The translations under genes and the position numbers were made by a program. The notes beneath the pieces were generated by a model. It had not been told where the DNA came from. It saw only the letters and a list, made by a program, of their open reading frames with translations, and searched no databases. Shown here in pieces: positions 5,131 to 56,087 of a stretch of DNA of 64,000 nucleotides. The stretch's first letter is position 1; every line of letters begins with the position of its first letter. Origin of the DNA: Dipetalonema caudispina (Eukaryota > Nematoda > Chromadorea > Rhabditida > Onchocercidae). The DNA lies in contig JABVXV010000219.1 of assembly GCA_013365325.1 (NCBI GenBank), forward strand, positions 44,804 through 108,803, in the 5' to 3' direction.

Positions 5131-8100
5131 TTATATTAAACGAGCAGGACTCAGTATATAAATATCATTACTAATTGTATGGATAAACGGAAGGCGATTA
5201 TCACCTTGCATATCACTACGCATCCCACCAAACATTATCAACTCTCCTCGACCAGCACATAGCGAATACAGCATCGTATCATCCGGTGCGTTCAAATCGT
5301 TCTCTTGCTGACGCCATCTGAAAAATTCAAAATTTCATCTTTGAATAAACAACACATAAAAGATACAATTATACAAATCCTAACCTTCTCTGATTAGCTG
5401 CATAACGGTATGAATTCACTAAAATTATACAACACGCGAATGAATTTTGTAGTTTTCACCGAAATTTTCTCCAGCTATTCAATATGTAACTACATATTTC
5501 CACAAAGTGCATCATAATGACTTTCAATAACTCACGTTACTGTAAAGTCCTCCAAAACTCGTGCGGTGTCGAGTATATAAACACAAGCATTCCCTAGACG
5601 CCTTTTATGATACCAATTTTCTGAAAAGACATAAAATACTGAGAAACTAATTACTGCATATGCATTACCTTTTAACGTACTTAATAACGAATACACATGG
5701 TGAATTGAACGAAGAAATCGATACGACCAGAAGTACTGCTTGGCTAGCAGTCATTTTATTAAATGATGAAAAAATTTCAAAAAGTTCGCGAAAAAAAAGA
5801 ACTTACTTCCGGAGCCTCTCGATGCTGCACCAGAAGCATCATTATCACGCTTTAAATTGCTGAAAAACAGAAAGCATGCATTCTAAACTGGCAGAAGCTA
5901 AAGCCCATAATATTTATACTGTAAAGTTAACCAAACTTTGAAAGCAAGTGCTCCATAGAGGACTGAACTTTAGAAATGAAGTATTAGGAACTATAATCGA
6001 CTCATGAAATACCAAGACTCTTTCTCATACGTCCTTCACAAAAAACTAACGCCAAGCAAAGAATCTCTCAAAAGAAAAATGTATATAGATAGGATAGTTC
6101 CTAAAAAGAGTTTCCCATATGAAGCCAAAAAAGACTTCAAAGACTTTCATAAAATCTACAGAAAAAGAGAGTCTTTAAAACAATAGCACATATAAAGAAC
6201 TTACTTTTTCGCATGCGATGAAGAGGTAGATGGTTGACAACCCGAAGAATTCAATTTTCCGTTCAATGCAAGGTCCATGTTATTCCTATACCTAATGTAT
6301 TAATCTTACATCTGAACTGTCGCAAAATTTACCGTTTATCAGTGATACTTTTCGAAATATAATTTAAGTTCCAAAGAATTAAATTTAAATTTAACAGGAA
6401 TTGTACCTTGTATTAGAGGGCTGCAGCGTGACATTATTCACTGGACGCGATGGCTAAAAAATTATAGAATAATTCAACAGTTTCATGAAATTCTATAACC
6501 AAACAATTTGATTTTTTTAAAAATCACATACCAATTGAATCGGATTTTTTGAAGTAACCTGGAGTGGTGCTGGGCACGAATTCAAACTGATCGTGTTATA
6601 CCTAAAAGATCTTAAGTAATTCCTGATCTTTCCAGATCTTTGACAAGTTATTTCTATTGTATGAAACAAAGTATAGTGAATGTTAAATACATACTTTCTG
6701 GAATCAGAAATAGTAAAATTTTAAAATCCTGTTCATTCAAAAGATATACAATTTTAAATTATCGTACCCATTACTCTTCCTTGCATAACTTATATACGCA
6801 AGATTCCGTCCAATTGGACATGCTGGGTGACACCAAAGCTGAGACGGACCTGATCCTGGATTCGTGATCTGAAATAACAACAAAATTATGCTGCTGGGAA
6901 AATTTGTTAGGTAAACGCCAAAATTTTTAATCCCACTATATTTCCACAACAATTCTTTCGCCTCTGAGATACGAAGTTAGACGTAGGTATAAACTGGAAT
7001 AATTCTGACATACATATCTACCAAATATATAAATGCCCACGATACAAATCCTAAGCATTTGAATTCTATTCTGAGAACTGGGCATAACTAGTTTCAATTT
7101 AAATTTGATTGGGAAAAACGCAGTGCAGTTCAAAAGCGTTTTATTCAGCATCAATGCCACACATATCATCAATCTACCAGACTTATCAGAAAACAGGGAT
7201 CAAAACTGACATTAATTTGTTTCCATTCCCACGCAGTTTGCAATGTCAAGTCGAACGTAAGAAGCCAAGCATCGTTGTAGATACAGTTCGGACCACCACA
7301 TCCACCGACCACGAGCAGGTGCGATTTGTCAATTACGACACATGAGCTACCATAACGGGGGTTCGGTTGTGGATTTTTCAACAAGATCTGTTGACCTGAC
7401 GATGCATCCGACTTTTCACAACTTCGGTTTTTATGATTCCTGCCGAAATTGATGTTTCATATATCCAGTTTTTAATCACAGCAAATACTGAACCCAAATA
7501 ATGAAAAACGCAACAATCTTTAAAATATCTCCTCGAATTCAATGAAATATATACTACAGAAAATGAGCTTACTAAAGCAGTCGAAATGTGACAATAAATA
7601 GTCGAGAATCGACATTATCGATAGTTTACTAATCACTAACGAATCTAAAACTTGTACAAAACCGCTTAGGAAAACTTACTCAGCGAATGATGGCATGTGC
7701 CAGATTTTACTGATAATATTCAGAACATAAACAGTATTTGTAGCACGGCTGTTCTGAGAACCACCAAAAATAATCAGCGAATCATCTACCACACATGCAC
7801 AATGACTTGCAATTACAGGGGGTGGAGGTTTCGTCTCGATCTGAAGAAAATACTGGGATAATATCAAGAATAATGTGTCTGGGGAAAATTCGGGAGGCTT
7901 TAAATGTCCAAATCTTGCTGATATGATTTAAAAGATATGGAACAGCTTCATGGAATATGAAGAAAGACAAAATTTTAAGCAATAAACCGATGAATGTACC
8001 ACAATGGAAGCAACATTTTACTGACTGATATTTCCCATATGAATAGATTCTGATTACCTCAATCCACTCATTCGTTTTAGTGTCATACATATGTATTTCA

Positions 8101-8971
8101 TTAAAAAAATTTGCTGCTTGGTGGATTGGGTTTGGCGAGGATTTTGCGAATCCACCATGGAGGATCAAATATTCCTTGTAAGGCACAAAAATGGACATTG
8201 CCTTCGGTCGCGGGAATGGAGCACACTTAATAAATTCTCGACACCAATTGCGGGACCTCTGAAATTACAATTTTGAACTTCCCAGAAAATGTAGGACTAT
8301 TTTTCGAATTTTCATGGAAGTGTACCGACCTTAAATGAACAGTAAATTAAACTGCACACAACTTTCCCCAAAAAATTCAACAAACAAATCCATGAAGATA
8401 GTAGAAGTATACCAGGTCAAAACTCCAAAGGTCGTTGAAGGTAGTATAATTATCCGTGCATCCACCAAATATATATACCTTTTTTGTACCATCATGATAA
8501 CAACCTGAATGTGAGCAACGTTTTGCAATTGCACGATCTCCTTCCTTTTCTGCTGCATGCAGACTCCTATAAATAAGATACACAATCATTTCGAATCTTT
8601 TCAAATAAAATTCAATAGCGAAAGATTTCTTCAAAACATCATGACTACTAAGGCAGTCGGATATAACCATTAGTGAACATTGGAAAAGACGAAAAACACG
8701 ACACAGCTTTATGAGATTATATTCCGCAGGCTTCATTTCCCGAATATTTTCATTTTTTCAGCACAACAACCTGCCCAGAAACAATTTACACTTCAACTAA
8801 CCAAATCAACTGATTGCATCGAAAGAAAGATTTTTTTAAAATACTAATGATAGTGCATGTAACGCGATGCCATCGACGACTAACTAATCGGACATTCTCC
8901 AAATCGCCGTATTGATTCAAATATGAGAAGACTATTTCCAAAACAAGATCCGGCAATTCATCGATATCCAT
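5131..8971 (-). CDS. fbxo42: F-box/Kelch protein, FBXO42 type
   Basis: Substrate-recognition subunit of an SCF (Skp1-Cul1-F-box) ubiquitin ligase; mammalian FBXO42 (JFK) targets p53. Twelve exons close in phase: 8971-8802, 8566-8413, 8258-8058, 7840-7680, 7439-7211, 6868-6798, 6601-6532, 6453-6407, 6285-6205, 5859-5807, 5620-5536, 5317-5131; about 502 residues against 717 in human. The F-box is residues 4-45 (DELPDLVLEIVFSYL, then RLVSRRWHRV). Kelch blades follow: VYIFGGCTDN with FNDLWSFDL; YLILHGGFAKSSPNPIHQ; LIIFGGSQNSR; HLLVVGGCGGPN with YNDAWLL. The FBXO42 signature LWCHPAC comes next, then a Ser/Asn-rich linker shorter than in human, and a last blade with GRGELIMFGG. An out-of-frame ATG 8 bases upstream opens a two-codon uORF. 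The Kelch core makes the assignment strong; some linker exons are short and less certain. Confidence 0.9.
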
Positions 8972-10273: not shown

Positions 10274-13200
10274 ATGCCAATGACTGCATCATCATTCTCG
10301 GATACGATGCTCTATGGACAACATGTGCGGATCAGCGTCGCTGCTAGCCAGGTCTGTTCAATTGTTTCTGTTACCGCTGTTGCTATTACTATTTCCTATA
10401 TTGTTATGATGAAATGAAGATAGAATGAGTGCTAAGTGAACATAGCAGATGAATTGTGATTCCTTTAATTATGATTGCTAACAATATATTAACTATGATT
10501 AACCGATTAGGGTCAAACCAAAACCATCGATAGCTATACCAGAAAGTGGAATAGAATTATCTATTAGTCAGAATAACCTTAAATTTTCTTCAAGAAAGTC
10601 ACATGATATCAATTTTTGTAGATGTTGCAAGAACAGTAAAGGACCTTTTTATCTCTTCTTTTTTTGCTTTACTATTATTTTACGGTTTTTCAGAATAAGC
10701 TACAGTTCAGTGACAAAAAACTGTTATACCTTATGATTGCCTTCGTTAATTTTAACCTTTTCACTGCTCATTGTTGCTATGATGGTACTTTATCATTGTT
10801 ATTACTTTGATACATTATAGCAAAAAGTTTTCAGGGTGGCAGAAGATATATGGAGGATCGAGTACACATCGAATGTGTTCGGCTTCCTAATGGCACTGTT
10901 GATTACCTTTACTTTGCTGTTTATGATGGACATGGTGGTTCAGAAGCCAGTGACTATGTCCGAAAACATCTCCTGAAGAACATTCAGTCACAGTTTGGCT
11001 TCGACGGCAGTGATGAACAAATGTTGGATGCTATAAAAAAAGGTTTCGTCGAAACGCATCTTGCGATGTGGAAAGTTGTCGGTTGGTATATGAATCTATA
11101 TGCGACTTTCTTTCCACATAAATTTTCCTAACATTTGTAAATTTGGTATTACAGTTTCCTGAAATTTAAAAATTTTTCACTGGTATCAAGAACATTAACA
11201 GTGACACTTTACAGACGATTGGCCCCTCACTTCCTCTGGTTATACTAGTACAGCAGGTACCACTGCCAGTTGTACTTTTATTCGACGTGGGAAGATATTC
11301 ACTGGGCATGTTGGCGATTCCGCTGTAATCCTGGGAGAAATGAATAGTTTGTTTTTCTTGCTCTTTTAATGACGAATTACTGCAATTTTCGGAAATTTCC
11401 AATGTGTTTAAAACCCAGCAGTATTCTTTTCCCGAACTTAAGTAAGTAACTCAAAAATATTTCTTAAGTAAATGGCATCTTTAGATGGTGAAATAAGAGC
11501 TAGTAGTTTGACAGTTGACCATAAGCCCGACAATTCTATCGAAGTGCAACGAATAAACAGTGCTGGTGGAATGGTAATGAAGAAGTCAGGCGTCACACGC
11601 GTTGTTTGGACAAGACCTATTCGGGGTCATGTTGGGCCCGTACGCAGGTCTACACCGACCGAAAGTATTGCTTTTCTTGCTGTTGCCCGTGCTTTAGGTT
11701 GGTGAAAGTTAAAAATATTCGGGTTTTTTTTTTGTTTGAAAACTTATTTCAAGTATGAGAAATTGTGGATGTTGTTTTAAATTTTTAGGTTTAAAAGAAC
11801 AGCTTCCAGGTAAGTGCGATTCCGAAATCCTTAACCTCACAGTTGTTTCGAATTTTACAGGTGATTTATGGTCATATAATCGAGAAACGAAACAATTTAT
11901 TGTAAGCCCTGAACCAGATGTCGCTGCATATGATCTTAACGATAACAATTTATGTTTGGTGCTTGGCTCAGACGGGCTAACCAATGTTTTAAAACCACAA
12001 CAAATTGTCGATATTGTGATGCATTATGAAAAATTATCACGTGATAAAGTAAATTTTTACTGTTCTGAAAAGGCTTTGTAAATAGAGAACACAGCGAGAC
12101 CGATATTATCTCAAAGCGGTTTTCTTGGGAAGTTTTGTACACGTGGACATTTTCAAAAAATTCTAGATATTTTATTACATTGTTATGCAGTGAAGTACTT
12201 TATTCCATTTATCATTTTAGCACGGCAGGTTACCAAATCATTCTCGTTGGATACTTCGTCATGCATTGGAAGGTTGGGGAGCGTCACGTGCTGATAATAT
12301 ATCAGTTATATCAGTTAGTTCATATTGTAATTTTCTTAGAAACTTTGCTTGAACTAGCCACATTAAGATGTTCTCTTTCTGTAATGTAGGTTGTACATTT
12401 TCAGGTATTTTTCGACAAAAAGAATATAGAAGTTAACGAAACATCAGTTCTGGCTGATGATATTAATTTGTGTCTGGATAAAGCACTTACAGACTTCGGA
12501 AATTCGACAGTCATGTTAGGACCGAAATATTGTAAACAGCTGAAAACGTTGGATGTCGATTTATATTATTCGGGCATCGTAGATCCCAATTTTACTACTG
12601 GTTAGCAACAGTTTTTATCACTTCCATAAAAAAATCCTCTGAGTTCTTATAATAATGGAGGTGTTAAAATCTTCGCTACATTATGTATCATTTCATGGTG
12701 AATTTATTATTCTTCTCAAGAGGTGTTAGAGCTGATTTAAATAGATTGTGATAAGAGTGTAAACTTTCAAAGTCTTTTTTTTTTGGTGATTTACACCAAC
12801 GACTACGCGGTGATAAATTAGAAACTTTGTAAATTTCAAATTTCATCCTTTTATTCTTAAAGAAGCGAAGGAAGGCAATAAGTTTTTGAGATAAATCGAA
12901 ACTATTCTAGAAATCACTTACAATGGACCTGGATATACACGTGATATTAGACGTCCGCTTACCCTCGTACAGTTCTCAGATATGCCAGTAATGCCGCTGT
13001 CTTCATTAGATCGTGTCTCAGCTATCCGTCGTTTAAGTGAATTATTCGGCACCAATAGTAAAGTTAAAGTGTTATCAGCTGGATGTGTTACTGGAGTAAT
13101 ATTGGAAGGAATGGATGAATTATACGAGAACCTTATAGAGTAAGTGAATTTACGCCCGTGATTCAGCGAGCTTTTTACAACTTTTTGAGAAATATAGTGC

Positions 13201-33332: not shown

Positions 33333-36300
33333 TCAAAAATGGTTCATCGGATAAACTGGATTTTGTGCAGCTGTCATTGGATCACTACCATTACCGTGAT
33401 AGTGATGATGGTGGTATGTCGGTTGGAACAGCGGGACTTGAACTAAAATGAAATAATTAAGACAAATAGAAAGATAAAAACTGAGAAGGAAAAAGAAGTA
33501 GACACAAAATTGCAGAGCACTTGGAACATACAAACGTGGCTCGTATCGGCTACATGTTCGATCGGAATATAGGGAAGTGAAGTTTATATTTCGCTGTAGT
33601 TTGACATCTAAGATAGTGGGTACTTCAGGATATGACAGGAGTAATATAATCTACCCTATATCTAGTATTATATGTAAATATCGTTTAGAAAAAATCATAC
33701 ATTGATATGCTTGTTGCTGCATATTCACTTCTGGTTGCTGCGCATAATAAGACATTCCGTTGTTCGGATATTTCATCGAATGAACATCATACTGTTGTGG
33801 TGCAGAACACTCTACGAATGTTTGAGATGGAAACCGTGGAAAAATGGATGACTTGTTTGGATTGCTATATTGATTGTAGCAATGACCGAATCTTGGATAT
33901 TCAATCCCATTGTACATCCTTGCACTATCCTACAAAAGATAGACAACGAATGACTTCTAGGCTTTCCTAAATTTAACAACTTTGTTTTGAGTAATTATAA
34001 TATTGAGCATATTCCAAATACTATTGCCTTTTGATTAATCCCATCATTTAAGCATATGAAATGGATGATTAGCTGAAGTTGAAAGTAAGAAAACACAAAG
34101 ACTTTTACTAAAACAAAGTACCATATGTGAAAATGCCGCATTATTTGTGGACATATGGCATCCATTGTTAAACAAATTTAATAGTTGCTGTTGTTGATGA
34201 CGAGAATGATGGTATTGTTGAAAATGCGCAAATTGATAATGCTGCTGCTGCTGCTGCTGTTGCTGTTGCTGTTGTTGTTGCTGTGGCTGATGTAGCTGAT
34301 TGGATACTGTTGCAGATGCTGGAATTGAAGATGCATTGCTATACATACTACCGTTAACATTGCTGCTGCCACCATTGACATTGTTATTACCGACTAATGA
34401 TGTTAATGGCATAGCATTCGTGCTACCAATACTACTCGTACTGCTACTGCTGCTAGCATTCCTCGTACATAATAAGGAATTGTCTTGTAATATTGTTGGA
34501 GGTGCTGGTACAGCTAATGCTGATGTTACTGGAATTCGTTGTGGCTGATCGCCTGAAACGATTGAATCATTTATTGATCACAAAAGTTATGCTTCTAGAA
34601 AAAATTAAAGCTGGAATTTTCATGTCATGCCTCCAATGATTTACCTATTCCACATATTTAGAAAACTAATCTGTATTTGGACTTATAATAAGTACTGCAA
34701 ATCTGAATTACAACTGCTTTTTTTTGTAGTTAAAAACGTTAAAACTGCTCATCTGATTGCTTGAGAAAGCAAATCTTTAAAGTCATGAACACCACTATCA
34801 TACGAGAAGCACATTCCTTTCCGAGACAATTGTATTAAGCAAAATTTAATTAATGAAATATCACTGGTTAACAGCAAGCATACCATACTTACATAATGAA
34901 TATCACTTACAAGGTGGTGTGAGAGCATTTTGTTGAGGTGTTACAGCAGCACTATGTGAATCATAAAACGAATTTGTGGAGCATCTAGCGGATGCAGAAA
35001 GATGTGCTGGAGACAGGGCACTATTGGGCGTACCACAGGTAGCTGACATCGGTGAAACTATCTGAAAATAATTGCCGTTCCATGTTAATCCTTCCTTAAA
35101 AAATTCAGGATTTTTACGAATTTTGACATCTGGTTCAATTTGTCAGGTTTTTAGTCGAATTTATTCATTAACTTTAGTTTTAATCATAACACTCATCACA
35201 AAGATACTTCATTGTTCCAATGTTATAAAAAAAAAAAAAACCTTGAAATCTGACTAATAATTTGGCTTCATTGCTTACTTATGATTTGCTGTTAACCAGA
35301 AGAAAAACATACCGAACTGCTTGCGGACTGCACTTTAAGCTTTTCGGTTTCCGCACCTAACGTGGATGGCTGTTCATCACAACGATTAACCAATACTCCA
35401 TCCAAGCAGTTTCCTCCAAGATCATCCAGTGAATTGTTCTGCAAAAATTTACAGTGATCTATAAATTCCCATAATTTAAAGCGAAAGAGAACAACATCAT
35501 AAACAATGTAACCAAAGAAGTATTTCGTGTTATCTTAAGAATAATTCTAAAACTTTCTATCCTCTACGAAGGTTGTTTCTTATGAATGACGGGCTCAATT
35601 TGGATTAGAAAATTGTTCCGCTAAAATACAATTCAAATGTATCAACTCAGAGCCCTTATTCCACTATTTCACGTTATAAGAAATTTGACTGCATTTGTAA
35701 CTTTCGATTCCCAAAAATCTCAAATTAAGATTCAAATCTAGTGCAAAATTATTTGCTGTCAACGTTTATCAGTTATGGAAGTGTTGCTCCAACTCAAACT
35801 AATGCCTAATATTATCTGAAACTAAATATATGGAATAAGAATAAGAATACCGGTCCAATTTGATCCATCAAATCTTTCACGTGTGATTCAGCTAACTCCG
35901 GCATTGCTGACAAATTGCTCATTTCTTCGGGAATGGTGGAAGCTCCAGTTTCGTGCGCTTGTGATGTTGTTGGTAATATTGAACTACCCAATCTTGCTTG
36001 ATCGTACTGTTCAGCTCTTTCTAATTCGGGAACAATACAGTTCATTTGGTGTATTTCCTTAGCCATCGATTTGTTAGACTATATAGAAAATATTATTCCT
36101 ATTTAACAAAATTATGTCCAATATTTAATGTTGAAATTTCAAAACTAACATGCAAAATAATGAAAATGAAAGAAAAGCAAAATTAATTCGTAGCTAATTT
36201 AATGGAAATTATTTTAAACAACAAATTTAAATCCTTTACATCCATTCCGTCATTATAACTGCTTGTTGGACAGTACGGTGCTTGCTTCGACATCATAGTT

Positions 36301-48115: not shown

Positions 48116-50035
48116 TCAGCCGCTAACAAATTTTATACCCTTGGAAATATTTTTTTTCAATTCTGGAATGGCAGCGTCGACAAGGCTCTGTTCGTATGCA
48201 TTAAGCTTTCCCATTCCAAGAATCTTCTCAACTCCATTTTTCTAAAGAAATTAAATTAATTAAAATTCTACAGTTTCAGGAAACATCAGTTATCCTGAAA
48301 TTACGCAACATGAAAAACTTACACCTAACTCCAATGATGTTGCAAAGTAATCCACGCCATTGCAAGCATTAGAAGCTACATATGCACACTGGACGGATTT
48401 TTCACCTCTGAGACCTTTCAGTAAACTTTCCACAAATTTTGAAGCTGCCACAGCCATTGAAAGCGTAGCCGAGCCCTAAGTTTTTCTGATAAATAATCAT
48501 AATTCCATGATGCGACATATCAAAGAACATAAATTAAACATAAAAAAAGTTAGGATTAAAGCATTAAAAGTCTAATTAATGATGATTTAGACCAAATGAA
48601 TTTACTTTTCAAAATGTGACTTTTTTTCGTGAGTCAGTCCTTATTCAATTTGATCTTATATCAGCAACACAAAGCATTTACATGGGAGTAAATAAAGAAA
48701 GGTCGAATAGATAGGAAAATGAAAATGAATGATTACTCTATTTTTAATGAAAACAACATCGGAAATTCATTCCCTAAATTAATTCCAAACAAGAATCTAC
48801 AACTTACAGCTCCAGCTTTTGCTTTCACAACTTCCGTTCCAGCATTTTGGATCCGTTCTGTTAACTTTTTCACTTCATCATCCGAGAACTTACAGGACGG
48901 TTTCGCTTGAGAAAGAACCGGAATGATAGTAATCCCAGAATGACCACCAATCACAGGTATGTTTGTTTGCTCAGCGTCTAGACTCTGAAAAAAATAAAAT
49001 ACAGAACTGACAGCAATGTTATTTGACGGTGATGTTAAAAAATCACTCCTCCGCACATTACATATACATTTTTAAGAACTATGCAAAGAACTTGAAGCAT
49101 GAAAATACTTTGGCTCCTGCAACAAATGCTGCTGATCGTACAACATCGAGTGTTGTAACACCAAATATACGTCGTGGGTCAAAGACGCCGTGTTTTTTGA
49201 AAATTTCACAAGCTATTGGAACTGTTGAGTTAATAGGATTCGTGATGATTGCAACGAAAGCTTTCGGACAATTTTTTGCGGCTGCTTCACTTAAGTCTCG
49301 TACAATGCTAGCGTTGGTATTGAACAGGTCATCACGAGTCATACCTGGAAGTAGCAGACTTCCGTTACCAATCTAAAAATGTTGTATTTTCTAACAGTGA
49401 AGTACGGCATAAATTGAAGTTCTACATAGTTCTGTACCAGGAAATTCCCGTGTCAAAAAAAAAAAAATAGAAAAAGTCAAAATCGAAAAACCTGGTTTCC
49501 GTGGTAAACCAGCAGGTATCACTACAATATCAGCACCTTGTAAAGCTTCATCCAGTTCATTTGGACCAGTGTGTCCCGTGACCTGAAATTTAAACTTCGA
49601 CTAGGAAAAAGCATACAAGCTACGACGAATAATGCAACCGATGACGAAAACTTCTAAAAATCGTGGAATTATTTAATAACTAATAAAAAATAGTTAGTAT
49701 TAAAGTACGTTAGCTCTAGTATTGATATGTGACAGATCGGCGGCTACACCTGGCGTATCTTTGACATCGTATAATGCTAACTTTGCCACATGATTATTCA
49801 TTTTTAGAAGCAGTCCAAGCGGTTGTCCAATACCACCAGCAGCACCCAATAAAGCAATCTGTAAATTAAGTTTCCGTGAAATTTCTAATTTCCCAAAAAC
49901 TTTTTAAGCTTTTCACTGTAACTCGCTTTTTAGAAACCTTACTTTAGGTGCAGAACTAGCTGAACGATGACTGCGCATCTGCAAATTTCTCGTTAATGGC
50001 TCCAAGACTGCTGACATTCTTCCAATAATTGTCAT
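48116..50035 (-). CDS. mdh-2: Mitochondrial malate dehydrogenase
   Basis: NAD-dependent oxidation of malate to oxaloacetate in the matrix (TCA cycle, malate-aspartate shuttle). Seven exons close in phase: 50035-49943, 49858-49709, 49582-49492, 49344-49109, 48984-48808, 48475-48323, 48241-48116; 341 residues, the normal length. The start lies 10 bases after a TTTTAG acceptor (likely SL site). Residues 1-30 form an Arg/Ser-rich targeting peptide. The NAD loop is [11 protein letters not shown] at about 35-45; the mobile-loop arginines are in PRKPGMTRDD; INPIN-type segment is [10 protein letters not shown]; the second substrate arginine is in [11 protein letters not shown]; the catalytic histidine is in VIGGHSG; later blocks are [20 protein letters not shown] and the C-terminal [13 protein letters not shown]. 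All catalytic residues are present, so it should be active. Confidence 0.95.
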
Positions 50036-51465: not shown

Positions 51466-54152
51466 TCACATGAAAAATTCCTCCGGTGCTTCATTTTTCT
51501 TCTGCATAATAACTCGTTCCATAGCTCTATCGAAATCTTCCAGACATACAAACTTTCTTTGCGCACGAAGTGCAAGCATTCCGGCTTCTGTACAGATTGC
51601 CTAAAAACGATGAATAAAAATAACCGGATAAAAAAATATAACCGAACGATTGAAATTAGCTACTGGATACCTTACAATCAGCTCCGGAAAGTGATAATTC
51701 TGAGGCGTATTTTTCGAATTTAACATTAGCTGCAATTTTCATTCCTGCTGTGTGTATTTGAAAAATTTTGAGTTTTGTTTTTTCATCTGGTTTTGGTAAT
51801 TCTATTTTACGATCAATACGGCCTGGCCGGATGAGTGCCGGATCTAATACATCAATCCGATTTGTTGCCATTATTACCTGCATGAAAAAAGAAGGTTATC
51901 ATTTCTTCTAACAAATAATGAGCATTATTTTTTCTATATTTTGCATCCAACATTAAATCTAGTGATTACTCAAACTATTCTGATTTATTTGGAAACGGGA
52001 ACGTCCGAAAGGTCAACTCTTATGGGATTAATTCTGTGAAAGTATTGGAAAAATATACAACTAGATCTCCGATCTTTTGAATTATACTAATGATTCACTT
52101 GATTTTTTTCATCGATTCCTTGATGAAATTTTCAGAAAACTCAACCTCTGTTAACCTCTCTCCTATTGCTCCAAATAGATTACCTTGACATCACCACGGC
52201 TTTCAAATCCATCAAGTTGATTCAACAATTCTAACATCGTTCGTTGAACTTCTCGTTCACCACCACAGGTTGTATCATATCGTTTCGTACCAACTGCATC
52301 AATTTCATCGATAAATATGATGCATGGAGCTGATTCTCTGGCCATCCGGAATAATTCTCTCAAAGAATATAAGATATTATTCGTGCATTGATTTTTTTGT
52401 GAAAAAAAAAAAAAAAAAAACCAACTTACCGTACTAATTTAGAGCCATCACCACTATTTTTCTGGATCAAATCAGCACCGGTAACTCGGATAAATGTTGC
52501 CGATGTACTATGTGCTACCGCTTTAGCTAGTAAAGTTTTTCCTGCAAAAATAACGGTCACTCTTCAAGATCATTAAAGCTTAAAATGTTTTGGTATACAA
52601 TCATCAGATCCTTTCCCAAATCATTTTAGTATAATAGATGTTTATTCTGGAAATGGCGGAAAAGTCCGTTTTCAAAATTTTCATGAATCAATGATGCCAT
52701 TATCTATTAGCATTTATAATGTTATTAAGTAACATTATAAAGAGTCTTTCTTATTATATGTCTTCTTAAAGCTCTTAATGGATTGCCATTATATTGTAAA
52801 TTTCAATTTGCCAGTAGTATTTCATTTCATTTTTTTCCAAAATATATTAACGCTAAAAGCAACCTGTTCCCGGTTCGCCAAACAAAATGACACCTTTTGG
52901 AGGTGTAATGCCCATTTCTTCATAATATTCCGGATGAACAAGCGGTAATTCAACAGTTTCTTTGATTTCCTGAATTTGTTCCTCCAATCCTCCAATATCC
53001 TGTATTTGTTTAAATCATTAAGATAATGTTAATGGAAGTTTTCCAGAATGTCAAAGAATAGTGGTCAAAACGTTGAGCTATCCTCTCCAGAAAATAACGA
53101 TAGACTATGTTTATATTTTTCAATCAATATATATCTTTCAGAGTAATTTAAAAAGGTCACTTCAAAATCTGAAGACAAATCAGTAAATAAATTTTGGAAG
53201 TTTTCCCATTATAGATTTTGAATTTAAATTTAAAACTGACATCGAAAGATTCTTTAGGTGCTTTTTCAAGTTTATTAATGATCGAATTAGAAGCATCAAT
53301 GCTATCGTGCAATACTCCAACCACTGCAACTGGAACATTCTTCAATGATCCTTGAGCTTTTACCATAACCAAAGCACCGATCCGGATTAGATCCTTATCA
53401 ACAATTGATAATATCGGAATGTACCATTCCCGTTTGTTACCTTCGATAACCACTACAGCATGCTGTAATAATGAGAAAACTGTTTGAATATAACAACGTA
53501 TAGTTTTAGCTGAATTTAAAAAGAACGTGAAAAATTAAGCCTACACTTTTTATGATTACAGATATTAATTAAACAAAATTTGTTTATCTCTGTAGAAATG
53601 TTCAAATTCCTATCTCCTTCCGCAATTTTTTCAATCCTTTTGTATCATTTCAATACATAATTAATTCTACCTTTTCATCGAGGAAAAGTTCATGAATTCG
53701 AGCAAGTGCAATAGGTGAGCCACGTAATGCATTTACAGTTTTACGTTCCTTCCTTTGTTGTTCACTGATTGATCCATGTTTTCCTTGACGTTGAATAAAT
53801 TCTTTTTCCAACAACAAATAGTCTTTTATACGACTCATTCGTAAGAGTTTCAGATAACAATGTCTTCGTGGCATCGCTGAAATGACACTTTCAAATACTA
53901 AATACTACACCAATAATATATCAAATAAGGATGAATTACTAATTGATTCATTTTCCGCTTATTAGCAAGCGATCAAACTGTTGGCATAATTTATTGAAGA
54001 ATTTTTTTTTTAGATATAGATTATGATTCTCCACCTTGTGGTAATTTATTGGCTGTATCTTGAGGTCGTTGTGGTTTACGAGCAGTTTTCATTAAGGCAT
54101 GTTGTGGCATTGCCACTCCTTTTTTATCTGGCCTAGATACCTGATTGCCCAT
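51466..54152 (-). CDS. Divergent 26S proteasome ATPase, Rpt2 (PSMC1) type
   Basis: Member of the hexameric AAA+ ring that unfolds ubiquitinated substrates. Eight exons close in phase: 54152-54035, 53876-53671, 53462-53241, 52999-52864, 52541-52430, 52358-52184, 51877-51671, 51600-51466; 436 residues, near the canonical 440. The N-terminal MGNQVSR keeps the Rpt2 myristoylation glycine. [19 protein letters not shown] is Rpt2-specific. Walker A is GEPGTGKT (223-230), Walker B IIFIDEID (278-285), then [20 protein letters not shown], and the arginine-finger block [18 protein letters not shown]. Divergent features: pore loop 1 reads LIQKNSGDG where Rpt2 has LIQKYLGDG, and the C-terminus is EEFFM where Rpt2 ends in a Leu-Tyr-Leu HbYX tail; the OB-domain region is also diverged. 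It is probably a paralogue with a specialised role, unless it is this worm's only Rpt2. A symbol is withheld for that reason. Confidence 0.9.
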
Positions 54153-54788: not shown

Positions 54789-56087
54789 TCATTTCTTCGT
54801 TTCACTTTCACCTTCACCAACCTCTTCTTTCTTCTCCTGAAAATTTCCTCTTTTTTTCAATTATTCAATCAAAAAAGCTTAGAAAATTCAAAGTACTGAA
54901 TTCAATCCTTTAAACGTTTAAGAGAAATATGTTAAGCCTTTGAAAGATAAGAAGATGTTGTAATTCCCCGGGAGATTCTAATCAAAGTATCTGTCATCTT
55001 CGGAGCTATCCTCCCATATTTCTTCCATTCTTGAACACCTCTCGAGAAAATTACAATTTAATGAACTTGAAGTGTACACACACACACACAAGTGCACATA
55101 TATCCGTACAGACATTAAACACGTACCGTCTCACTCTCCTTCTTATCCGATTTATCTTCCTTTTTATCCGTCTCTCCCTCCTTCTTATTTTCTTCTGCCT
55201 TCTTTTCTTCCTTTTCCTCTTTCTTTTCCTCCTTCTTATCGTCCTCCTTCTTTTCCTCCTTTTTTTCATCATCTTCTTTTTTTTCTTCCTTCTTTTCCTC
55301 CTTTTCAGCCTCCTTCTTTCCTTCCTCTTTTTCTTCATTCAGTGGCGCTTCTTGTGTTGCCATCACGTTCATCTCATTTGGAGCCTTTTGATCACTTTGA
55401 GTCTAAAACGACAATTTATCAATGTTAATTTCAATAATACGTCACAATGACGTCACACGTGATTCTACGTATCTCACCCACTATCAGATAAACCAATTCA
55501 AATCCAAAATATGTACAATCGAAGTTATCATAAATGTGGTGATGATATTAACCATTGCTGTATTTCTTGCTTCTTTTTTAGATTCTTCCTTCTTTATATC
55601 CTCTTTCTTTGAGCCTTCTTTCTTTGAACTCTCTTTCTTTGATTTTCCCTTTTCTTCAGCCTGAAATTTCAAACTTTCACTAATTTAATACTTCTTCATC
55701 CTTGTTCAAATTTCACACACATAGATAATTTCAACCATACTTTAAATAAAGAGTTAAACTTGGAGTATTCAGTAGTGCTAGACTTCTTGGAAAAGATGGA
55801 ATAAGGAAATTTATGATATTTATATATGACTTACTACTGTATATTTGGTCACAAATTACCGCTCTAAATACTACCACTAAATGTATTTGTATTGAATTAC
55901 TGAAATGACTTACTTCTTTTGCAGATTCTTTCTTCTCTTCTCCTTCTTTCTTCTTTTCTCCTTCACCTTCTTCCAACATAGATTGTGTCTTTTGTTCATC
56001 CATTGGAGGCAGAATTGTTGGTGCTACTAATGGTTGTCCAGCAGCAATTGCTGTATTGTTGACTCTAAATTTACTCAGTTTTTTGAC
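54789..56087 (-). CDS. Lysine/glutamate-rich (KEKE) low-complexity protein, N-terminus unresolved
   Basis: Four exons close in phase 0: 56087-55914, 55660-55553, 55402-55127, 54836-54789, giving 201 residues plus a missing start exon further right. The first visible exon, after a CTTATAG acceptor, begins VKKLSKFRVNNTAIAAGQPL and passes APTILPPMDEQ before turning charged. The remainder is almost only Lys and Glu with some Ser, Asp and Ala (KSKKESSKKEGSKKE, then repeated EEKKEEKKEDD-type units), ending GEGESETKK. Such KEKE runs form extended or coiled-coil structure and occur in proteasome-associated proteins, chaperones and cytoskeletal proteins. No catalytic domain is seen and I do not recognise the family. 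It ends about 0.64 kb upstream of the Rpt2-like start on the same strand. Clean splice sites and constant phase support a real gene. Confidence 0.65.

What the first reader, a model, noticed from the sequence alone, without database searches (positions are those of the whole stretch)
52453..52461. Rpt2-type proteasome ATPase without its pore-loop tyrosine
In the reconstructed exon 52541-52430 the substrate-gripping loop reads LIQKNSGDG. In Rpt2 from worms to human the corresponding loop is LIQKYLGDG, the aromatic-hydrophobic pair that pulls on substrate. Walker A, Walker B and the arginine fingers are kept, so the subunit should still bind and probably hydrolyse ATP and join a ring. An ATPase that turns but does not grip would be a new kind of specialised proteasome subunit, or part of a tissue-specific (for example germline) 19S particle.
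Basis: partly seen in the sequence, partly recalled or inferred. Interest (0 to 1): 0.75.

Follow-up and report, generated by a model that had tools for sequence, protein, structure and literature searches.

The report
Nematode Rpt2 copy lacking pore tyrosine
Roundworms carry a second, long-conserved version of one motor subunit of the protein-shredding machine (the proteasome) that has lost the amino acid used to grip proteins, and in one model worm its likely counterpart changes expression together with sperm genes, which points to a special germline form of the machine.

Summary
On the minus strand, eight exons (54152-51466) join at GT-AG borders into an intact 436-residue Rpt2-like ATPase whose pore-1 loop reads LIQKNSGDG. 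It is no error or decaying copy. The same genome has a normal Rpt2 (QKYLGDG, tail LYL) and Rpt1, Rpt3-6 with Tyr or Phe, so this is at least a seventh Rpt. Of 171 homologues listed by two capped searches, 51 lack Tyr/Phe there, 41 of them named and all nematode, 10 unnamed; 120 keep it. In an 88-tip tree the 39 non-aromatic tips form one clade with no aromatic tip inside (UFBoot 100). Filariae, Ascaris, strongylids, Caenorhabditis, Pristionchus, Steinernema and Strongyloides are in it. Key ATPase residues are unchanged in 39 of 39. The C. elegans member is almost certainly C10G11.8, which varies with sperm genes. Best reading: an alternative, probably male-germline, Rpt2 in an otherwise ordinary ring. 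"Turns but does not grip" goes too far: removing only Rpt2's tyrosine in yeast had minor effects (PMC13186983). Incorporation, expression in filariae and codon-level selection are untested.

The parts
54035..54152 (-). Exon 1: start codon, N-terminal tail (MGN...), ends KLPQ
   Evidence: donor CACAAG|gtggag
53671..53876 (-). Exon 2: N-terminal helical (coiled-coil) region [20 protein letters not shown]... and LRGSP
53241..53462 (-). Exon 3: OB-like region with the family-specific insertion, [11 protein letters not shown] at 53363-53331
52864..52999 (-). Exon 4: start of the AAA domain, ends inside Walker A (GEPGTG|KT)
52430..52541 (-). Exon 5: rest of Walker A and pore-1 loop
52444..52470 (-). 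Pore-1 loop LIQKNSGDG (canonical LIQKYLGDG); Asn-Ser codons at 52458-52453
52184..52358 (-). Exon 6: Walker B (IIFIDEID, 52321-52298), pore-2 region (52291-52250), LLNQLDGF
   Evidence: acceptor tttgag|A
51671..51877 (-). Exon 7: sensor 1 (MATN) and arginine fingers RPGRIDRK (51829-51806)
51466..51600 (-). Exon 8: lid domain and C-terminus EEFFM-stop (canonical LYL, the HbYX-type tail)

Best explanation
The gene encodes an alternative Rpt2 (26S proteasome ATPase subunit 4) that arose by an old duplication and is kept across many chromadorean nematodes beside the ordinary Rpt2. It most likely takes the Rpt2 place, next to Rpt1, in the six-membered ATPase ring of a specialised proteasome, probably made in the male germline. 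It should bind and hydrolyse ATP like its partners, but its pore-1 loop (mostly K-N/S/T-S-G-D/E-G) has no tyrosine to contact substrate. The five other pore loops would still pull, so such a proteasome should degrade proteins, with altered behaviour: no aromatic Rpt2 contact on the substrate, no Rpt2-Tyr bond to the Rpt3 pore-2 loop in the resting state, and a changed N-ring because of the OB insertion. Shown: intact gene, orthology, loss of the aromatic residue throughout the clade as sampled, intact ATPase motifs, separate canonical Rpt2. Inferred: incorporation into the ring, male-germline role (from C. elegans), biochemical effect (from yeast mutants).
For: Intact 8-exon gene with GT-AG borders. 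Canonical Rpt2 and five other Rpt genes of the genome keep Tyr or Phe. Three of seven introns fall at the same alignment column as an intron of canonical Rpt2, two with the same phase as computed and the third after correcting a one-base border slip, so the copy arose by DNA duplication. 51 of 171 listed homologues lack the aromatic residue. 39 of 39 such tips are one clade, UFBoot 100, sharing an OB insertion (G146 in 37, K149 in 36 of 39). ATPase residues invariant in 39 of 39. Tail hydrophobic-Tyr/Phe-X in 23 of 23 rows of A1. Best solved relative by sequence is human Rpt2. C. elegans C10G11.8: 238 identities over 438 and 443 residues with WBGene00004502 (rpt-2 by recall); P0029 of C. nigoni is also 438 aa, with 240 identities to the filarial canonical Rpt2. 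It rises within a table of 171 genes (the paper's number) in which 16 rows carry 'sperm' in their description, and is listed in a KEGG Proteasome set. Rpt2 Tyr-to-Ala in yeast: ATPase, capture and release like wild type, degradation minimally affected. rpt-2 RNAi gives only a modest rise of a germline proteolysis reporter in C. elegans, which would fit partial cover by a second Rpt2 (PMC9428126).
Against: No evidence here that the protein is in a 26S particle. The sperm link is co-variation in one C. elegans study whose gene set also holds collagens, so it may partly reflect staging; the C10G11.8 sequence itself was not read. No sex or stage data for filariae. rpt-2 RNAi still nearly abolishes brood and hatching, so the paralogue cannot replace RPT-2 generally. 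The window protein misses Pfam PF16450, the filarial tail is FFM instead of HbYX proper, and P0001 runs 16 residues past it, which could weaken docking on the 20S. Earlier studies quoted in PMC13186983 reported differential defects for pore-loop mutants, Rpt1's being the mildest in one.
Confidence: 0.55

Rival explanations
1. Tissue-specific duplicate with a neutral loop: the copy is kept for its expression or for other surfaces, and the pore tyrosine was lost because Rpt2's tyrosine hardly matters.
For: Yeast Rpt2 Tyr-to-Ala is close to wild type in the 2026 study. The first loop position varies among N 23, S 7, T 6, H 1, E 1, Q 1 of 39. The clade evolves faster than canonical Rpt2 (mean root-to-tip 0.61 in 39 tips, 0.067 in 4 nematode canonical tips).
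Against: No aromatic-loop tip lies inside the clade, so no reversion was seen in 39 tips, and the second position is Ser in 37 of 39, which suggests selection for a specific loop.
Confidence: 0.25
2. Off-ring or inhibitory role: the protein competes with Rpt2 during base assembly, or works outside the proteasome, for example in sperm chromatin or meiosis.
For: The OB region is diverged with an insertion, and the tail is variable: FFM in the window, extended in P0001.
Against: ATPase and arginine-finger residues are kept in 39 of 39, and the tail keeps a hydrophobic-aromatic-X pattern in 23 of 23 rows of A1, which a free inhibitor would not need.
Confidence: 0.15
3. Assembly error, pseudogene or mis-spliced artefact.
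For: The exon 6 acceptor (tttgag) is weaker than the others and a poly-T run lies in intron 5. Some database gene models of the orthologues are broken.
Against: The same loop type occurs in 51 of 171 listed proteins from many genera, and an uninterrupted relative at 96% identity comes from an 1806-base contig, shorter than the intron-bearing gene.
Confidence: 0.02

Closest known systems
Canonical Rpt2 / PSMC1 (26S proteasome regulatory subunit 4)
   Same: Domain order, ATPase motifs, lid, N-terminal MG, tail of hydrophobic-aromatic-X type; 60% identical over 406 residues to the canonical Rpt2 of the same genome
   Different: No pore-1 aromatic residue, OB-region insertion, Glu to Lys/Arg at position 272 in 39 of 39, N-terminal tail about 15 residues shorter
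C. elegans C10G11.8 (P91025)
   Same: Almost certainly the orthologue: 438 aa with 238 identities to WBGene00004502, which I recall as rpt-2
   Different: In the two passages seen it appears only as an AAA-domain gene in a table and as a KEGG Proteasome entry; its pore loop was not read here
Drosophila testis-specific 19S and 20S subunit duplicates
   Same: Lineage-specific duplicates expressed in testis (passage in PMC12650242)
   Different: I recall Rpt3R, Rpt4R and Rpt6R as the ATPase copies; their loops were not checked
Mammalian spermatoproteasome (PSMA8)
   Same: Germline replacement of a single subunit (passage in PMC12650242)
   Different: An alpha-ring subunit of the 20S core, not a 19S ATPase

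Membership tests
Rpt2 / PSMC1 | Closest to Rpt2 among the six Rpt types | tested here: met
   PDB sequence search: best hit human subunit 4 (Rpt2), chain 12bm_B, E 3.4e-150, best of 293. Structure search with a moderate model of relative P0004: the first 32 rows are chain B or I of 26S entries, chains that names subunit 4 for 7qxw_B, 5vfp_B and 6fvu_I
Rpt2 / PSMC1 | Walker A, Walker B, sensor 1, arginine fingers | tested here: met
   GxPGTGKT, DExD, ATN and RPGRIDRK unchanged in 39 of 39
Rpt2 / PSMC1 | Aromatic residue in pore-1 loop | tested here: not met
   0 of 39 in the clade have Tyr, Phe or Trp; 47 of 47 canonical rows have Tyr
Rpt2 / PSMC1 | C-terminal HbYX tail | tested here: inconclusive
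   Window FFM; in A1 Tyr in 15 and Phe in 8 of 23 at the middle position
Rpt2 / PSMC1 | OB domain of the PF16450 type | tested here: inconclusive
   PF16450 not among the 8 Pfam hits at E 0.001; strands in this region are predicted in the model
Rpt2 / PSMC1 | Member of the 26S particle between Rpt1 and Rpt6 | not testable with these tools
   Needs biochemistry
Testis-specific proteasome subunits | Expression limited to male germline | tested here: inconclusive
   Only co-variation of C. elegans C10G11.8 with sperm genes in one published table

The most novel reading that the evidence does not exclude
Chromadorean nematodes build a dedicated germline 26S proteasome in which the Rpt2 position has by design no aromatic grip on the substrate: a five-pawl motor tuned for other substrates or for clearance during spermatogenesis, a natural proteasome motor with one permanently silent pore loop.
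Probability: 0.3. Interest if true: 0.82.

Novelty: new variant of a known kind. Interest (0 to 1): 0.62.

Why it matters
How the six unequal ATPases share the work of gripping substrate is an open question studied with artificial pore-loop mutants. Here evolution has done the Rpt2 experiment and kept the result in many nematode lineages, with a candidate in C. elegans (C10G11.8) where it can be tagged, deleted or given back its tyrosine. It also suggests a nematode germline proteasome distinct from the testis forms described in flies and mammals.

Tried and rejected
Sequencing or assembly error and pseudogene: rejected. Several independent losses: not favoured, because the clade is single with UFBoot 100 and shares an OB-region insertion. 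Placing the duplication exactly: not resolved; nodes joining the clade to canonical Rpt2 have support 58, 60 and 65, and its sister in the tree is two unnamed canonical-type proteins. Clade I nematodes: one canonical Trichuris protein (P0008) was seen among the 171 listed, which is no full search. dN/dS: not possible, no coding DNA of relatives was at hand. Structure model of P0004: moderate (mean pLDDT 70.9, pTM 0.52); TM-scores near 0.5 with large rmsd point to poor domain placement, so nothing is concluded on loop geometry. NCBIfam: 21 hits, each below its curated cut-off. tRNA scan of the window: none.

Papers. The ten searches that ran (two searches returned nothing) cover open-licence PMC papers only. 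In the listings and passages seen I found no paper that discusses a nematode Rpt2 paralogue or its pore loop; two papers hold C10G11.8 as a table or list entry. Seen: PMC13186983, PMC9428126, PMC4453063, PMC12650242 and PMC6762213 as found passages; PMC10576830 as found passages and one whole section in three parts; all others as search listings with abstract beginnings.

Full report
Observation. The minus-strand gene was rebuilt from the raw sequence: eight exons, 54152-54035, 53876-53671, 53462-53241, 52999-52864, 52541-52430, 52358-52184, 51877-51671 and 51600-51466, with GT-AG introns, giving 436 codons and a stop with no internal stop. The pore-1 loop is LIQKNSGDG at 52470-52444, with Asn-Ser coded by AAT AGT at 52458-52453. 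The finding's coordinates and reading are right.

Is there a canonical Rpt2 in the same genome? Yes. The assembly (78 Mb, 764 contigs) has on contig C665 an Rpt2 with QKYLGDG and tail LYL, 443 aa, open throughout. Contigs C55, C521, C108, C364 and C385 carry proteins that I assign, from loop and motif knowledge, to Rpt1 (QKYVGEG), Rpt3 (QKYLGEG), Rpt4 (DKYIGES), Rpt5 (QMFIGDG) and Rpt6 (QKFIGEG), judged from tblastn pieces. All six keep Tyr or Phe, so the window gene is at least a seventh Rpt (the genome search scores only the best candidates). Its protein is 60% identical to the canonical Rpt2 over 406 residues. Three of its seven introns fall at the same alignment column as an intron of the canonical gene (columns 53, 337, 407); at 337 and 407 the phases agree, at 53 they agree once a one-base border slip in my canonical model is allowed for. 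A DNA-level, not a retro-, duplication follows.

Relatives. A protein search listed the best 120 of 7995 scored hits and a profile search from 23 family members the best 120 of 7996, together 171 different proteins. In 51 of 171 the pore tyrosine is replaced (N 32, S 9, T 7, H 1, E 1, Q 1); 118 have Tyr and 2 Phe. The 41 named members among the 51 are nematodes: Onchocerca, Wuchereria, Dirofilaria, Ascaris, Toxocara, Panagrolaimus, Bursaphelenchus, Aphelenchoides, Steinernema, Strongyloides, Parastrongyloides, Rhabditophanes, Caenorhabditis, Necator, Ancylostoma, Haemonchus, Angiostrongylus, Pristionchus, Mesorhabditis and others; 10 are unnamed. Nine of the 10 unnamed ones are uninterrupted reading frames whose longest contig is 1.3-1.8 kb, for example P0001 (96% identical, 1806 bases). 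As the window gene has seven introns, these are most simply read as spliced transcripts.

Tree. With 88 proteins (39 without an aromatic loop residue including the window, 47 canonical Rpt2, and Rpt3 and Rpt6 pieces as outside group; LG+G4, 1000 ultrafast bootstraps) the 39 form one clade with support 100 and a stem of 0.57 substitutions per site; no aromatic-loop tip falls inside. The four nematode canonical Rpt2 proteins in the tree form their own clade with support 100. Nodes linking the paralogue clade to canonical Rpt2 are weak (58, 60, 65), so the tree does not show at which node the duplication happened; the spread of members implies an age at least that of the common ancestor of the chromadorean groups listed. 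The paralogue clade evolves faster (mean root-to-tip 0.61 in 39 tips against 0.067 in those 4).

What is kept and what changed (39 family rows against 47 canonical). Unchanged in 39 of 39: Walker A GxPGTGKT, Walker B DExD, sensor 1 A-T-N and RPGRIDRK; around the loop Lys255, Gly258 and Gly260. Position 256 is N 23, S 7, T 6, H 1, E 1, Q 1; position 257 is Ser in 37, Gly in 1, Ala in 1. The two groups were split by this loop, so these loop counts describe the groups and do not prove them; the tree and the other traits do that. Other clade-wide shifts: Glu to Lys/Arg at 272 (39 of 39), an insertion in the OB-like region (window [11 protein letters not shown], residues 142-152; G146 in 37, K149 in 36 of 39), and Gly to Arg/Lys at 297 near pore loop 2 in 32 of 39 (Gly is kept in 7, among them the window and the filarial and ascarid-like members). 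The tail is hydrophobic-Tyr-X in 15 and hydrophobic-Phe-X in 8 of the 23 rows of alignment A1. Protein-level conservation with one functional element removed is not the pattern of a decaying gene. Codon-based dN/dS could not be computed for lack of relatives' DNA.

C. elegans and expression. I recalled C10G11.8 as a possible C. elegans member and used the name as a search word. PMC10576830 Table 3 gives C10G11.8 as an AAA-domain protein (P91025) with paralogue WBGene00004502 (rpt-2, recalled) at 54.3379% and 53.7246% identity. The only whole-number solution in the range tried is 238 identities over 438 and 443 residues; P0029, the Caenorhabditis nigoni representative of a 15-member cluster, is 438 aa with 240 identities to the filarial canonical Rpt2. 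C10G11.8 is therefore almost certainly the orthologue, though its sequence was not read. In that table it rises (logFC 2.12 and 1.72) within a set that the paper counts as 171 genes, of which 16 rows, counted by eye, carry the word sperm in their description (major sperm proteins, sperm-specific classes P, Q and S, sperm meiosis PDZ, sperm chromatin); others such as gsp-3, alg-3 and spe-46 are germline genes by recall. The set also holds cuticle collagens, so part of the signal may be staging. PMC6762213 lists C10G11.8 under KEGG Proteasome. In PMC9428126, rpt-2 RNAi nearly abolishes brood and hatching but raises a germline proteolysis reporter only modestly (passages): the ordinary RPT-2 is essential, and partial cover in the germline by a second Rpt2 is one possible reason for the modest reporter effect (my inference). 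The evidence for a male-germline role is real but indirect.

Mechanism. In the 2026 yeast study, replacing the Rpt2 pore-1 tyrosine by alanine left ATPase, substrate stimulation, capture and release close to wild type and degradation minimally affected, whereas the same change in Rpt4 or Rpt6 was harmful and in Rpt1 sped up ATPase and degradation (PMC13186983, passages). The same text says that earlier studies gave variable defects. It also describes the Rpt2 tyrosine bonding to the Rpt3 pore-2 loop in the resting state. A ring with the nematode paralogue should therefore still degrade proteins, with one silent loop and a missing resting-state contact. Whether the loss is an adaptation or a tolerated change is the main open point; the near-constant Ser and the lack of any aromatic tip inside the clade argue mildly for adaptation.

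Structure. An AlphaFold model of the ascarid-like relative P0004 from a 49-row alignment is of moderate quality; its first 32 PDB matches are chain B or I of 26S proteasome entries, chains that the sequence search names subunit 4 where both list them. It confirms the family, no more.

Verdict. A real, old, nematode Rpt2 paralogue without a pore tyrosine in any clade member sampled: a new variant of a known kind. The ten paper searches cover open-licence PMC papers only, and in what I saw of their results nobody discusses this loop.

Noticed in passing
window 48733-49903 (-): A lactate/malate dehydrogenase-type gene in several exons lies just downstream; two of its open frames hit PF02866 and PF00056.
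   Followed up: partly
window 55115-55402 (-): Lys/Glu-rich low-complexity open frame just upstream of the gene.
   Followed up: no
window 11740-12081 (+); 7782-8264 (-): A PP2C phosphatase piece (PF00481) and a weak kelch-like piece below Pfam's cut-offs.
   Followed up: no
window 34044-34577 (-): Gln-rich open frame without a Pfam hit.
   Followed up: no
P0003, P0012, P0002 (relatives): Deposited gene models of filarial orthologues look mis-spliced at or beside the pore loop (Wuchereria, Dirofilaria) or with intron read-through (Onchocerca flexuosa) when aligned with the window protein.
   Followed up: partly
P0001 (relative): The closest relative runs 16 residues past the FFM tail, so its C-terminus may not be free to dock on the 20S.
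   Followed up: partly
P0101, P0140, P0142 (relatives): Unnamed canonical-type Rpt2 proteins with loop KYSGDG: Tyr kept, Leu to Ser, half of the change seen here.
   Followed up: no
PMC6762213, KEGG Proteasome list: C. elegans F56F11.4 is listed beside C10G11.8; I recall it as an Rpt6-like duplicate, so a second worm ATPase paralogue may exist.
   Followed up: no
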